The translations under genes were made by a program, and so were the position numbers. Shown here piece after piece: positions 60,846 through 64,000 of a DNA stretch of 64,000 nucleotides. The first letter of the stretch is position 1, and every line of letters begins with the position of its first letter. The DNA comes from Christiangramia portivictoriae DSM 23547 (GTDB lineage: Bacteria > Bacteroidota > Bacteroidia > Flavobacteriales > Flavobacteriaceae): assembly GCF_000423045.1 (NCBI RefSeq), contig NZ_KE383971.1, positions 568,092-632,091 on the forward strand. Reading direction: 5' to 3'. Below the pieces are notes generated by a model. It made no database searches. It saw nothing but the letters and a program-made list of their open reading frames with translations, and was not told the origin of the DNA.

Positions 60846-62119
60846 TGGAAACCTTGCTGAAAAAAGATAAATTTTATATTCCCACGCTGGATGCGGTGAA
60901 AGAGGCTTCGGAAAGGATCTCTAAGGTAGTGCTGCAAACTCCTTTGGCAGAATCTTTTACTTATAGCCAGCGCTTTGAAGCAAAGGTAATGCTGAAGCGT
61001 GAGGATCTGCAACAGGTTAGATCTTACAAAATTCGTGGGGCTTATAATAAGATTTCGAGCTTGCCACCGGAACAACTTGAAAAAGGAGTGATTTGTGCCA
61101 GCGCCGGAAATCATGCCCAGGGTGTTGCCTTCGCCTGTAATAAGCTAAAGGTCCGGGGAGTGATCTACATGCCCGGTACCACGCCACCACAAAAGGTAGA
61201 ACAAACTGAAATGTTTGGCGGTGAGTGGGTGAAAGTTGTGCTTAAGGGTGATACCTATGACGATTCCTTTAAAAGTGCCATGAAGCATATGACTGAGGAA
61301 GGTCTCATTTTTATACATCCTTTTGATGATGAAAAAGTGATTGAAGGCCAGGCTACCATTGCCCTGGAGATCCTTAAACAATCGGATGAGCCTATCGACT
61401 ATGTTTTTGCACCGCTGGGCGGGGGCGGACTCCTCGCAGGGATCTCATCCATGTTCAAGAAATTATCCCCAGGTACGAAGATCATTGGCATTGAACCGGA
61501 AGGTGCTCCCTCAATGCAGACATCTTTAAAGGAAGGTAAGGTGGTTGAACTGGATCATATCGAGCGATTCGTAGATGGCGCATCGGTGCAGAAAGTTGGC
61601 GCAAGAAATTTTGCGATCTGTAAGGAAAATCTTGATGAAATGATCACGGTGCCTGAAGGAAAGATCTGCCAGACCATTCTTGATTTGTATAACCAGGATG
61701 CGATGGTAGTGGAACCTGCTGGCGCCATGGCGATTTCGGCTCTTGACCTGTATGCTGAAAAGATTAAAGGCAAAAATGTAGTTTGTATCGTAAGTGGTAG
61801 CAATAACGACATTATCAGGATGGCTGAAATCAAAGAACGCGCCCTGTTATATTCGGGTTTAAAACATTATTTCGTGGTTGTATTTCCGCAGAGGGCAGGG
61901 GCGCTGAAGGAGTTCGTGGCAAAAGTTCTTGGGCCAAACGATGATATCACTCATTTTGAATATTCGAAAAAGCATAACAGGTCTAATGGGCCGGCAGTTG
62001 TAGGGATCGAATTAAAAGACCCGGCAGACTTTGAACCACTGGTGGAGAGGATGAAAAAGAGGAATTTCTATGGGGAGTATTTAAACAACAATCCCAATTT
62101 ATTTCAATTTTTAATCTAG
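60845..62119 (+). CDS. ilvA: Threonine dehydratase
   Basis: PLP enzyme that deaminates threonine to 2-oxobutyrate, the first step to isoleucine. The 424-aa length and single C-terminal ACT-like domain (about 330-424, HYFVVVFPQRAGALKEFV) fit the shorter biosynthetic type. The PLP Lys is in QVRSYKIRGAYNK, the phosphate loop in PLGGGGLLAGISS and the C-terminal SGSNNDIIR is present. Last gene of the ilv operon; the arg promoter starts directly after it. Confidence 0.95.
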   Translation: METLLKKDKFYIPTLDAVKEASERISKVVLQTPLAESFTYSQRFEAKVMLKREDLQQVRSYKIRGAYNKISSLPPEQLEKGVICASAGNHAQGVAFACNKLKVRGVIYMPGTTPPQKVEQTEMFGGEWVKVVLKGDTYDDSFKSAMKHMTEEGLIFIHPFDDEKVIEGQATIALEILKQSDEPIDYVFAPLGGGGLLAGISSMFKKLSPGTKIIGIEPEGAPSMQTSLKEGKVVELDHIERFVDGASVQKVGARNFAICKENLDEMITVPEGKICQTILDLYNQDAMVVEPAGAMAISALDLYAEKIKGKNVVCIVSGSNNDIIRMAEIKERALLYSGLKHYFVVVFPQRAGALKEFVAKVLGPNDDITHFEYSKKHNRSNGPAVVGIELKDPADFEPLVERMKKRNFYGEYLNNNPNLFQFLI

Positions 62120-62145
62120 AACTGCCTATACATCAAAAATTTATA

Positions 62146-62153
62146 TACATTTG
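62146..62153 (+). promoter_or_regulatory. -7 box TACATTTG of the arg operon
   Basis: TACATTTG matches TAnnTTTG exactly, 27 nt after the ilvA stop. The predicted transcription start near 62157 is next to the leader ATG at 62158, so the first mini-ORF would be leaderless. Confidence 0.55.
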
Positions 62154-62157
62154 TAAT

Positions 62158-62220
62158 ATGATTTCTATCGCAAAGATAATACTAGTCCGCTTTAATTCGA
62201 GGCCCCGCCGCCGCTTCTAG
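62158..62220 (+). CDS. Putative arg leader peptide 1 (20 aa)
   Basis: ORF of 20 codons, stop TAG at 62218-62220. The peptide begins MISIAKIILV and ends RFNSRPRRRF: five Arg, four of them within the last six residues, as AGG and three consecutive CGC codons. It stands 235 nt before an arginine-synthesis gene pair (GNAT, argG). A ribosome short of Arg-tRNA would stall on the CGC run, which lies inside the stem-loop at 62196-62234. The first four residues equal those of the ilv leader peptide, with different codons for Ile2 and Ser3. Translation is inferred. Confidence 0.68.
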   Translation: MISIAKIILVRFNSRPRRRF

Positions 62221-62234
62221 GCAGCACCCTCGAA
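62196..62234 (+). promoter_or_regulatory. Stem-loop over the Arg codons of leader 1
   Basis: TTCGAGG (62196-62202) pairs with CCTCGAA (62228-62234). The loop holds the CGC run and the stop codon of leader 1. A second CCTCGAA at 62405-62411 could pair with the same arm instead, making two exclusive folds. A short CTTTT follows 4 nt after the stem, weak for a terminator. Confidence 0.55.
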
Positions 62235-62301
62235 ACGACTTTTAATCATATTATCTTACTTTTCCACATTGAATTATTTAAACGGCATAGAATACAAATT
62301 G

Positions 62302-62325
62302 AATATCAGAACTTTTTCTGATATT
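62302..62325 (+). promoter_or_regulatory. AT-rich hairpin before arg leader peptide 2
   Basis: AATATCAGAA (62302-62311) and TTCTGATATT (62316-62325) form a perfect 10-bp stem with a CTTT loop, 6 nt before the second leader ATG at 62332. It could act on start-site access of that mini-ORF. Confidence 0.6.
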
Positions 62326-62331
62326 TCTCCT

Positions 62332-62361
62332 ATGCGCCGCCGTTTTCCCCGTCGCACGTAA
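62332..62361 (+). CDS. Putative arg leader peptide 2 (9 aa)
   Basis: ATG at 62332, stop TAA at 62359-62361, peptide MRRRFPRRT: five of nine residues are Arg (CGC, CGC, CGT, CGT, CGC). It lies 94 nt before the GNAT gene. Its last codons and stop form the 5' arm and loop of a hairpin. Together with leader peptide 1 it gives ten Arg codons in two short ORFs upstream of an arginine operon, too many for chance in this AT-rich setting. The mechanism is unknown. Confidence 0.65.
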   Translation: MRRRFPRRT

Positions 62362-62366
62362 GTGCG
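62353..62366 (+). promoter_or_regulatory. GTAA tetraloop hairpin at the stop of leader 2
   Basis: CGCAC (62353-62357) and GTGCG (62362-62366) close a GTAA loop, a GNRA-type tetraloop that contains the TAA stop. A ribosome on leader 2 would melt it. No T-run follows, so it is not a classical terminator. Confidence 0.5.
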
Positions 62367-62377
62367 TCTATATATCC

Positions 62378-62411
62378 ATGGAACCCAGGTGAGTCCGGTT
62401 CTGCCCTCGAA
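62378..62411 (+). promoter_or_regulatory. Third mini-ORF and second CCTCGAA copy in the arg leader
   Basis: ATG 62378 opens a four-residue ORF (MEPR, stop TGA 62390-62392). GAACC (62381-62385) can pair with GGTTC (62397-62401). CCTCGAA at 62405-62411 repeats the sequence at 62228 and is complementary to TTCGAGG at 62196. It lies 43 nt before the GNAT start codon. Confidence 0.4.
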
Positions 62412-62454
62412 AACCCAGATCAAAATTTAATTTCCAACATAAATCTTTTAGCAG

Positions 62455-63087
62455 ATGAAAATTCTCATTGCTAATAAATCTCATGCATCTTATGCTGAGA
62501 TCATTTGTAATACTATCGAAGAATCGGCGAAGGTTCGCGGTACCGGTATTGCGCGCAGAACTCCTGAATACATCATCAACAAAATGGAGAAGGGAAACGC
62601 TGTGATCGCACTCGAAGAGGAAAATTTTGCCGGTTTCTGTTATATAGAAACCTGGAGCCATGACAAGTATGTGGCCAATTCCGGACTTATTGTCCATCCC
62701 GATTATAGAAACCAGGGACTGGCGAAAGACATCAAAAATGTCATTTTTGATCATTCCAGAAAAAAATATCCGGAAGCTAAAATTTTCGGGATTACTACCG
62801 GACTGGCGGTCATGAAGATCAATTATGATCTGGGCTATCAACCAGTCACTTTTTCTGAACTTACCGATGATGAGACATTCTGGAAAGGATGCCAGACCTG
62901 TAAGAATTACGACATTCTAACACGTACCGATCATAAAATGTGTTTGTGTACCGGCATGCTCTACGACCCCGCAAAGAAGAAAGACCTAAAGCTGAAGGAG
63001 AAGCCAAAGACCAATTTCAATGAAAAAGCATTTCAAAGATTGAAAAGTATCAAGCAGACGCTTTTTTATAAAAAAGAGAAGAAATAA
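62455..63087 (+). CDS. GNAT acetyltransferase, candidate N-acetylglutamate synthase
   Basis: Cytoplasmic acetyltransferase of 210 aa, first gene of the arginine operon. The GNAT core includes the acetyl-CoA loop VHPDYRNQGLAKDIKN (about 80-95) and a preceding beta-strand ETWSHDKYVANSGLIV. The C-terminal part has an unusual Cys motif C-x2-C-x13-C-x-C (GCQTCKNYD...MCLCTG), suggesting a bound metal. Its place directly before argG and behind the Arg-coded leader makes it the likely enzyme that acetylates glutamate at the first step of arginine synthesis; the specificity is inferred from context. Confidence 0.85.
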   Translation: MKILIANKSHASYAEIICNTIEESAKVRGTGIARRTPEYIINKMEKGNAVIALEEENFAGFCYIETWSHDKYVANSGLIVHPDYRNQGLAKDIKNVIFDHSRKKYPEAKIFGITTGLAVMKINYDLGYQPVTFSELTDDETFWKGCQTCKNYDILTRTDHKMCLCTGMLYDPAKKKDLKLKEKPKTNFNEKAFQRLKSIKQTLFYKKEKK

Positions 63088-63150: not shown

Positions 63151-64000
63151 ATGAAAAAAGTAGTTATAGCATATAGCGGAGGTTTGGACACGTCCTACTG
63201 CGCAAAATATTTATCTGAAGAGAAAGGATTTGAAGTGCATGCTGTAAGTGTGAATACCGGAGGATTTTCAGAAGAAGAAATACAGCAAATAGGAGAAAAC
63301 GCTAGGAAAATAGGTGCAAGTAGTTATAAGAATATCGATGCGATCCATTCGTTCTACCAGAAAGTAATTAAATATCTCATCTTCGGAAATGTGCTTAAGA
63401 ATGACACGTATCCTTTATCTGTAAGTGCTGAAAGGATCATCCAGGCTATCGAGATCGTTGAATATGCGAAAAAAATTGGAGCTGAATATATTGCCCATGG
63501 AAGCACAGGGGCAGGCAATGACCAGGTAAGATTTGATATGATCTTCCAGATCATCGCTCCGGAGATCCAGATTATAACGCCAATAAGAGACCAACAGTTA
63601 ACCAGACAGCAGGAGATCGAATATCTTAAAAGTAAAGGGGTCGAGATGAACTGGGAGAAAGCGAAATATTCGGTGAATAAAGGTCTTTGGGGCACCAGTG
63701 TAGGTGGAGCAGAAACGCTGACGTCAGAAAAACCGCTGCCAGAAACCGCATATCCCTCACACTTAAAAGAAAGGGAACCAAAACAAGTTCAATTAAGTTT
63801 TACCAAAGGAGAGCTTACCGCGATTGACGGAAAGCAGGATGCACCAGAAAAAAATATTGAATTACTGGAATCTATCGCTTCAAAATATGCGATTGGGCGA
63901 GACATTCACGTGGGCGATACTATAATTGGGATCAAAGGACGGGTTGGTTTTGAAGCTGCAGCAGCATTGATCACGATTAAAGCGCATCACCTGCTGGAAA
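63151..64000 (+). CDS. argG: Argininosuccinate synthase (cut by window end)
   Basis: Joins citrulline and aspartate with ATP to give argininosuccinate. The 5' 283 codons are in the window; the rest lies beyond 64000. The N-terminal PP-loop reads AYSGGLDTSYCAKYL, followed by HGSTGAGNDQVRFDM (citrulline/aspartate-binding loop) and ITPIRDQQLTRQQEIEYL. The start ATG 63151 follows the GNAT stop by 63 nt. Downstream genes of the operon are expected outside the window. Confidence 0.95.
   Translation, partial: MKKVVIAYSGGLDTSYCAKYLSEEKGFEVHAVSVNTGGFSEEEIQQIGENARKIGASSYKNIDAIHSFYQKVIKYLIFGNVLKNDTYPLSVSAERIIQAIEIVEYAKKIGAEYIAHGSTGAGNDQVRFDMIFQIIAPEIQIITPIRDQQLTRQQEIEYLKSKGVEMNWEKAKYSVNKGLWGTSVGGAETLTSEKPLPETAYPSHLKEREPKQVQLSFTKGELTAIDGKQDAPEKNIELLESIASKYAIGRDIHVGDTIIGIKGRVGFEAAAALITIKAHHLLE

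What the first reader, a model, noticed from the sequence alone, without database searches (positions are those of the whole stretch)
62146..62454. Arginine operon leader with two Arg-rich mini-ORFs
Upstream of GNAT-argG two short ORFs carry dense Arg codons: 62158-62220 (20 aa, five Arg, including CGC CGC CGC) and 62332-62361 (9 aa, five Arg). The first Arg run lies in the loop of TTCGAGG/CCTCGAA (62196-62234); a second CCTCGAA at 62405 could compete for the same arm; a 10-bp hairpin stands before leader 2 and a GTAA-loop hairpin spans its stop. No strong T-tract terminator is seen, so the switch may act through Rho-dependent termination, RNA cleavage or translation of the first gene. Peptide-sensed control by Arg is established for other amino acids; a tandem Arg leader is new to me.
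Basis: partly seen in the sequence, partly recalled or inferred. Interest (0 to 1): 0.88.

Follow-up and report, generated by a model that had tools for sequence, protein, structure and literature searches.

The report
Arginine-sensing leader of Bacteroidia arginine operon
Just upstream of the arginine-making genes of this marine flavobacterium lie arginine-rich mini-genes and RNA hairpins that recur in most of the relatives examined and probably let the cell read its own arginine supply, a job done elsewhere by a repressor protein that was not found in these bacteria.

Summary
Of 189 usable regions upstream of close GNAT homologues, chosen by protein similarity only, 176 carry the loop AGGTGNGTCC seen at 62387-62396 and 10 more a variant; among 16 more divergent family genomes only 4 do. 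In 136 thinned sequences the leader frame is rich in Arg (576/1768 codons vs 75 and 49 in other frames) and the hairpins covary. Leader 2 most likely starts at TTG 62269. Leader 1 is an extra module (59 of 136) with a long-range stem reaching to the start of leader 2. Outside the family a differently spelled hairpin recurs (16 of 52 vs shuffled mean 3.0). ArgR: 0 of 120 family genomes. No Rfam match. Best reading: ribosome-mediated arginine attenuation of the arginine operon (GNAT-argGC-proC-argDF'BE-argH). The off-switch is unknown: no terminator in the window; Rho is my guess. The competing CCTCGAA arm at 62405 is not supported. New variant of a known kind.

The parts
62146..62153 (+). Promoter -7 box TACATTTG (TAnnTTTG type), 12 nt before leader 1
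   Evidence: Sequence; in relatives 39 box-start pairs have TAnnTTTG 13-17 nt (26 of them 15) before an ATG or GTG of the main leader; consensus named in PMC9723704 (passage).
62158..62220 (+). Leader ORF 1, MISIAKIILVRFNSRPRRRF*, probably leaderless or nearly so
   Evidence: A leader-1 ORF (picked by box, length and at least 2 Arg in the last 10 residues) found in 59 of 136 relatives; clade alignment.
62173..62181 (+). 5' arm of long-range stem S (AAGATAATA), inside leader 1 codons 6-8
   Evidence: Complementarity within a genome beats arms swapped between genomes: mean 21.33 vs 17.81, 0 of 200 swaps as high; compensatory changes and RNAalifold consensus in 12 leaders.
62196..62234 (+). Hairpin H1 (TTCGAGG/CCTCGAA) over the Arg codons and stop of leader 1
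   Evidence: TCAGG/CCTGA in 9 of 11 relatives; L121 and L122 pair less well; not in the RNAalifold consensus.
62249..62257 (+). 3' arm of stem S (TATTATCTT), 11 nt before the start of leader 2
62269..62361 (+). Leader ORF 2, LNYLNGIEYKLNIRTFSDISPMRRRFPRRT*, start TTG 62269 (an inner ATG at 62332 is in frame)
   Evidence: 58 of 59 two-leader relatives have an in-frame TTG (39), GTG (10) or ATG (9) 22-36 codons before the conserved CGC; the frame is free of stops over 24 codons in 133 of 136 vs 23 and 39 in the other frames.
62302..62325 (+). Hairpin P0 inside leader 2, upstream of the Arg codons
   Evidence: this region folds better than dinucleotide shuffles in relatives (mean z -1.31 in 77 one-leader and -1.71 in 59 two-leader genomes; control region -0.05 and +0.54).
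62332..62357 (+). Arg codons of leader 2 (CGC CGC CGT .. CGT CGC)
   Evidence: The CGC at 62353-62355 is present in 136 of 136 aligned sequences; CGC plus CGT are 544 of 591 leader Arg codons, against 192 of 673 in window genes.
62353..62366 (+). Hairpin A, CGCAC-GUAA-GUGCG; stop codon 62359-62361 in its loop
   Evidence: C-G to A-U change at one pair in 15 of 136; 92.9% of cells paired, the outermost pair failing in 36 of 136.
62380..62402 (+). Hairpin B, GGAACC-CA-GG-UGAGU-CC-GGUUCU
   Evidence: 176 of 189 upstream regions match AGGTGNGTCC exactly; outer pairs 94.9% and inner pairs 100% formed; all four outer pairs scored and one inner pair have changes on both sides; RNAalifold finds it unaided.
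62403..62454 (+). G-poor spacer to the GNAT start
   Evidence: Over 131 relatives G 5.7% and C 16.5%, against 15.9% and 16.0% upstream of 26 other window genes.
62455..63087 (+). GNAT-family protein, first gene of the arginine operon
   Evidence: PF13508 and PF00583; function (N-acylglutamate synthase) inferred from position.
63151..64000 (+). argG (runs out of the window); then argC, proC, argD, N-acetylornithine carbamoyltransferase gene, argB, argE/dapE-type, argH

Best explanation
The region is a cis-acting, translation-dependent arginine attenuator for the operon that makes arginine. A leader transcribed from a TAnnTTTG promoter begins almost directly with a leader ORF; in this clade there are two in tandem. 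Ribosomes that lack charged tRNA-Arg stall on the CGY codons before hairpin A, and this should keep the operon on; with enough arginine they run to the stop codon in the loop of hairpin A and leave, hairpins A and B form, and expression falls. SHOWN by sequence comparison: the Arg codons, the reading frame, hairpins A and B, stem S in the two-leader clade, the position before the arginine operon, and that ArgR was not found in the family genomes searched. INFERRED: stalling, the direction of the response, that stem S lets leader 1 control the start of leader 2, and the last step. For that last step I favour Rho-dependent early termination in the G-poor spacer between B and GNAT, at about one in three; B may instead be read by an unknown factor.
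For: Loci were chosen by GNAT protein similarity, not by the motif; the loop pattern is in 176 of 189 and a variant in 10 more. Arg 576/1768 in frame vs 75 and 49. 24 codons free of stops in 133/136 vs 23 and 39. Start codons ATG/GTG/TTG interchange. Covariation score 0.177 vs 0.094 shuffled, 0 of 500; slid controls at most 0.082. Stem S, 0 of 200 swaps. The hairpin is single-copy: 7 pattern hits in the genome, the other 6 without the stem-and-leader context by eye, and one hit of model R1 in the genome. Leaders of the same style in other families, some with a hairpin whose apex is CC-UACGY-GG or close to it. The operon holds the arginine pathway genes. ArgR in 0 of 120.
Against: No expression, ribosome-profiling or mutant data were available. 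No intrinsic terminator or antiterminator pair was found in the window, so a classical attenuator is not complete. The strong conservation of the loop of hairpin B is not explained by ribosome position alone. No long-range pairing of the main leader with the GNAT start stands out (mean 14.65 vs 14.27 swapped, largest of 30 swaps 14.62). The motif is not universal: of 16 family genomes picked for divergent GNAT or no R1 hit, 4 have the exact pattern, and 2 near variants (L224, L231). In five of six genomes of genus group g128 (possibly Flavobacterium, my guess) a different leader with two or three Arg codons precedes GNAT.
Confidence: 0.72

Rival explanations
1. Hairpins A and B are a stand-alone RNA sensor or protein-binding site (an arginine aptamer or the target of an RNA-binding regulator), and the Arg-rich ORF is secondary.
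For: The loop of B is almost invariant while its stem covaries; the inner pair keeps pairing through GG/CC to GA/UC (L016 and L170, L109); a hairpin of similar layout recurs in other families.
Against: The Arg codons and the frame are conserved too; B is small, and its bulge varies in length and sequence, which does not suit a ligand pocket.
Confidence: 0.15
2. Translational coupling only: the leader ribosome opens or blocks downstream initiation, without any effect on transcription.
For: In many of the 59 examples printed the 3' arm of stem S ends within about 20 nt of the leader-2 start (the search region ended near that start by construction); no terminator found in the window.
Against: The loop of B lies 58-79 nt before the GNAT start in 127 of 136, too far to cover it; complementarity to the GNAT start region is barely above swapped controls.
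Confidence: 0.25
3. Classical intrinsic-terminator attenuation (trp/his type) through the leader-1 domain.
For: In some two-leader genomes stem S or its neighbourhood is followed by a U run (L008, L120, L123).
Against: In 77 of 136 genomes of the thinned set no leader 1 was recognised by my criteria; no terminator was found in the window; several S stems lack a U run after them.
Confidence: 0.12
4. The ORFs are chance or encode an ordinary small protein; the conservation reflects only RNA structure.
For: Dense Arg ORFs also occur by chance in the window (14 of 1106 including these two).
Against: Frame-specific Arg bias and stop avoidance extend upstream of hairpin A; start codons interchange; peptide sequence varies outside the Arg codons.
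Confidence: 0.04

Closest known systems
Salmonella orf34-speF leader (PMC6386406; abstract and passages read)
   Same: A short upstream ORF with consecutive Arg codons senses arginine by ribosome pausing; Rho-dependent termination is involved; a hairpin lies downstream of the stop codon.
   Different: Controls ornithine decarboxylase, not arginine synthesis; peptide of the DUF2618 family (PF10940), whose core HIRRT occurs in 0 of 136 frames here; no hairpin like B is mentioned in the passages read.
Leader-peptide attenuators of amino-acid operons (trp/his type); in Bacteroidetes the Bacteroid-trp motif RF01692 (table entry in PMC2864571; its attenuator role is recalled) and predictions in Flavobacterium psychrophilum (PMC9723704, passages)
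   Same: Codons of the regulated amino acid in a leader ORF before its biosynthetic operon.
   Different: No terminator/antiterminator pair found in the window; a conserved apical loop in hairpin B; no Rfam match. Whether PMC9723704 lists the arginine operon could not be checked (supplements not available).
S. aureus rbfL (PMC13009471; passages read)
   Same: Leader peptide senses arginine through Arg codons.
   Different: Represses translation of rbf by blocking its ribosome-binding site; its two Arg codons are AGA and the rare AGG; linked to biofilm control, not arginine synthesis.
Fungal arginine attenuator peptide, arg-2/CPA1 uORF (recalled, no call)
   Same: Upstream peptide controls an arginine biosynthetic gene.
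   Different: A eukaryotic nascent-chain arrest by free arginine; peptide sequence conserved, whereas here the sequence outside the Arg codons varies.

Membership tests
Leader-peptide transcription attenuator (trp/his type) | Short leader ORF with a run of codons for the end product | tested here: met
Leader-peptide transcription attenuator (trp/his type) | Lies before the operon that makes that amino acid | tested here: met
   GNAT-argG-argC-proC-argD-argF'-argB-argE/dapE-argH.
Leader-peptide transcription attenuator (trp/his type) | Mutually exclusive antiterminator and intrinsic terminator with U tract | tested here: not met
   0 terminator-like sites in window 62100-62470; no competing pair was found. 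Relatives were inspected only by eye. Hence 'works like', not 'is'.
Leader-peptide transcription attenuator (trp/his type) | Ribosome stalling under starvation changes read-through | not testable with these tools
   Needs reporter or profiling data.
Salmonella orf34 / DUF2618 (PF10940) | Homologous peptide core (HIRRT) | tested here: not met
   0 Pfam hits for leaders 1 and 2; HIRRT in 0 of 136 frames.
Bacteroid-trp RF01692, Flavo-1 RF01705 or any Rfam 15 family | Covariance-model match | tested here: not met
   Window region at E up to 5: six hits below gathering score, to unrelated families; nine relatives at gathering threshold: 0.
GUCCY-hairpin (PMC2864571, not in Rfam) | Published consensus | not testable with these tools
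   Only the table entry is in the held text; here GUCC is followed by A or G in 133 of 136, which does not fit the name.
ArgR-type repression | ArgR (PF01316) present | tested here: not met
   0 of 120 family genomes; control found in 9 of 14 genomes including Bacteroides ihuae.

The most novel reading that the evidence does not exclude
Hairpin B, with its almost invariant apex (GG-UGNGU-CC in Flavobacteriaceae, CC-UACGY-GG and close forms in some other families of the class), is a dedicated arginine-operon control element read by a trans-acting partner (an RNA-binding protein, RNA polymerase or the terminating ribosome). Together with the Arg leader it would form a terminator-free attenuator that stands in for ArgR. 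A bolder form, that the Arg-rich leader peptide itself binds hairpin B in cis like a phage N peptide on boxB (recalled), is not excluded but is disfavoured: the peptide ends change between families while the CC-UACGY-GG apex stays.
Probability: 0.3. Interest if true: 0.8.

Novelty: new variant of a known kind. Interest (0 to 1): 0.62.

Why it matters
It would explain how a large bacterial family in which ArgR was not found controls arginine synthesis, and it adds an RNA motif without a match in Rfam and with a strongly conserved loop. It offers a testable case of leader-peptide control without a classical terminator, in bacteria whose translation initiation is unusual.

Tried and rejected
Chance Arg-rich ORFs: density alone is weak (14 of 1106 ORFs in the window), but conservation rejects chance.

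Competing CCTCGAA arm at 62405: rejected. Downstream CTCGA persists in six relatives whose 5' arm is TCAGG.

A generic attenuator platform: AGGTGNGTCC occurs 7 times in the genome (15 for the pattern read backwards); the other 6 lack the stem-and-leader context by eye. CCTACGYGG occurs 48 times in five other genomes, fewer than the backward pattern in each; 30 of the 48 were fetched. Four lie before GNAT (L297, L305, L312, L318). Six hits inside long open frames also have 4 to 8 flanking pairs, so a short flanking stem alone proves little. In G531 the GNAT leader has CCTGCGCGG instead and is not hit.

SD-like reading of AGGUG (binding the 16S tail): disfavoured because the apex is GA/UC in some genomes and CC/GG outside the family.

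R1 hits outside the family (8 of 246 genomes searched, E 8e-4 to 9e-3): no argG in any of the loci of about 3 kb, so I take them as chance.

Long-range stem from the main leader to the GNAT start: mean 14.65 vs 14.27 swapped, not convincing. P0 could not be scored by column covariation because its register drifts, so I used folding z-scores.

Rows dropped, missed or chosen by eye: L047 (wrong side fetched) was left out, giving 189 of 190 loci, the window itself included. Named and unnamed sets overlap; 185 motif regions gave 167 distinct 82-nt cores, thinned to 136 at under 90% identity, so counts are not independent events. The 189 are the loci with the closest GNAT; 101 of 299 family genomes had no GNAT match, and weaker GNAT matches were followed in 16 genomes only. 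The 9 variants were picked by eye before alignment A1. Of the 4 loci left out of A1, L109 has a GA/UC variant, L064 and L103 are degenerate, L079 has none. One pair measure was weak: 13 further pair types vs 11.0 shuffled, 20 of 500 as high. Leader 1 was picked with an Arg criterion, and the region searched for stem S ended near the leader-2 start by construction. Hairpin B outside the family: 16 of 52, controls 5 (reversed), 1 (reverse complement), mean 3.0 and largest 9 (100 shuffles); the five spelled apex forms were chosen after I had read 26 of the 52; in the 26 not seen before there were 5. L258 and L290 are probably false. Exactly CC-UACGY-GG: L249, L256, L271, L278, L280, L281.

Full report
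Observation. The two Arg-rich ORFs, the hairpins and the lack of a T-tract terminator are as described. Arg density alone would not impress: 14 of 1106 ATG-started ORFs of 8-40 aa in the window reach 4 Arg in 9 residues.

Sampling. I searched 299 genomes of the family with the GNAT protein (62455-63084): 198 match. Upstream DNA came from the 30 best loci of that search (the window included), the next 80 in rank and 80 named loci (Christiangramia lutea is the closest named GNAT at 93%). One of these 190 (L047) was fetched on the wrong side, leaving 189. None was chosen by the motif, but all have a close GNAT. The named and unnamed sets overlap.

Main element. 176 of 189 contain AGGTGNGTCC upstream of GNAT. 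Nine more carry near variants that I recognised by eye and kept. Of the last four, L109 has a GA/UC variant, L064 and L103 are degenerate and L079 has none. Against this, of 16 further family genomes picked because their GNAT was divergent or model R1 had no hit, only 4 have the exact pattern, with near variants in L224 and L231.

Structure. After thinning, 136 sequences were aligned. Hairpin A (CGCCC-GUAA-GGGUG, here CGCAC-GUAA-GUGCG) overlaps the last Arg codon and usually the stop; hairpin B (here GGAACC-CA-GG-UGAGU-CC-GGUUCU) starts 14 nt after its last base in the window. For the 11 pairs named, 94.9% of cells pair (90.6% shuffled), 51 cells change on both sides (9.6 shuffled), and the covariation score is 0.177 (0.094 shuffled, 0 of 500; slid controls at most 0.082); the count of further pair types is weaker (13 vs 11.0, 20 of 500), and the outermost pair of A fails in 36 of 136. 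RNAalifold predicts B in full and two pairs of A unaided. The distance from the conserved CGC to the loop of B is 30-36 nt in all 136.

Leader ORF. Through the conserved CGC (136 of 136), the 13 codons that end there hold 576 Arg of 1768 in frame, against 75 and 49 out of frame. Of 591 leader Arg codons 544 are CGC or CGT; in 38 long window ORFs these are 192 of 673. A stop follows directly after the next codon in 117 of 136. The 24 codons upstream are free of stops in 133 of 136, against 23 and 39. Thirty-nine box-start pairs have TAnnTTTG 13-17 nt before an ATG or GTG of the main leader; in the window the box is 12 nt before leader 1. The leader would thus begin at or a few bases after the transcript start; that step is inference. 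Leaderless mRNAs were only 5.5% of those mapped in F. psychrophilum (PMC9723704, passage).

Two architectures. A second, upstream Arg leader was recognised in 59 of 136 by box, length and Arg criteria, the window's clade among them. There leader 2 has an in-frame TTG (39), GTG (10) or ATG (9) 22-36 codons before the conserved CGC in 58 of 59; about half would have one by chance (my estimate). In the window this is TTG 62269. Codons about 4-11 of leader 1 pair with sequence before the start of leader 2 (stem S): mean score 21.33 within genomes against 17.81 for arms swapped between genomes, 0 of 200 swaps as high. In 12 Christiangramia/Gramella leaders S shows compensatory changes and is in the RNAalifold consensus; the TTCGAGG/CCTCGAA hairpin is TCAGG/CCTGA in 9 of the 11 others but is not in that consensus. 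A further hairpin, P0, lies in the main leader before the Arg codons; its region folds better than shuffles (mean z -1.31 and -1.71; control region -0.05 and +0.54), but it looks absent in L066 and L074.

Beyond the family. In 149 genomes of the class, 57 have the GNAT, four of them of the window's own family. Leader-like ORFs with Arg near the C-terminus are listed for many of the 52 others I read; no chance control was run for these. Sixteen of the 52 hold a hairpin with one of the sought apexes, against a shuffled mean of 3.0 (largest 9), 5 reversed and 1 reverse complement. The apex forms were chosen after reading 26 of the 52; in the other 26 there were 5 hits, one probably false. Six have exactly CC-UACGY-GG. 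Clear cases are L248, L256, L271, L278, L280 and L281. I read this as a distant form of hairpin B; homology is inferred, not proved. Model R1 itself finds nothing convincing outside the family. The 19 genomes of genus group g128 shown have no R1 hit, and in five of the six g128 genomes read the GNAT is preceded by a different conserved leader.

Context. The operon is GNAT-argG-argC-proC-argD-N-acetylornithine carbamoyltransferase-argB-argE/dapE-type-argH. ArgR was not found in 120 of 120 family genomes while the control search worked. Neither leader matches Pfam.

Mechanism. The pattern fits ribosome-mediated sensing of charged tRNA-Arg. How the ribosome's position is turned into output is unknown. 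The spacer from B to GNAT is G-poor (5.7% G, 16.5% C over 131 relatives, against 15.9% and 16.0% upstream of 26 other genes), which suits Rho loading but equally an open start region. I therefore favour Rho only weakly.

Literature. Seen as abstract or passages: PMC6386406 (Salmonella orf34), PMC13009471 (S. aureus rbfL), PMC9723704 (Flavobacterium psychrophilum; states strong clues for leader-peptide attenuation before amino-acid operons without naming arginine there), PMC7366714 (B. thetaiotaomicron), PMC2864571 (table of motifs and passages). Searches listed no paper that, by title and abstract start, describes an arginine-operon leader of this kind in Bacteroidetes; the library lacks many subscription papers and I could not open supplements.

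Noticed in passing
L223, L225, L228, L229, L230, about 330 nt upstream of GNAT: In five of six genus-g128 genomes read, GNAT is preceded by a different, much conserved leader ORF (e.g. MNKISLHITSLSRTNSPITSPEVRTLSL* in L228) directly after a TAnnTTTG box, with only two or three Arg codons; a possible arrest peptide or structured RNA.
   Followed up: partly
L241-L292, upstream of GNAT: Leader-like ORFs in other families share C-terminal styles by group (..PFFPRR*..PVRPxFxxRR*..RRPYMPRA*..RxRI*), with a hairpin at or near the stop in several of the ten folded.
   Followed up: partly
start regions of leader 1 in two-leader genomes and of the single leader in others: Codons 6-7 of many leaders hold an ACATA- or AAATAATA-like box; in two-leader genomes it is part of the 5' arm of stem S, in one-leader genomes its role is unknown.
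   Followed up: partly
window 62455-63087: GNAT protein before argG is a weak match to the nearest NCBIfam acetyltransferase model (23.4 bits vs cut-off 154); it may be the N-acylglutamate synthase of this pathway.
   Followed up: no
L233 (G181, same family), upstream of GNAT: A family member whose leader ends ..RIPFYTRR* and is followed by GGUC-A-CU-UACGC-GG-A-GACC, the apex style otherwise seen outside the family.
   Followed up: no
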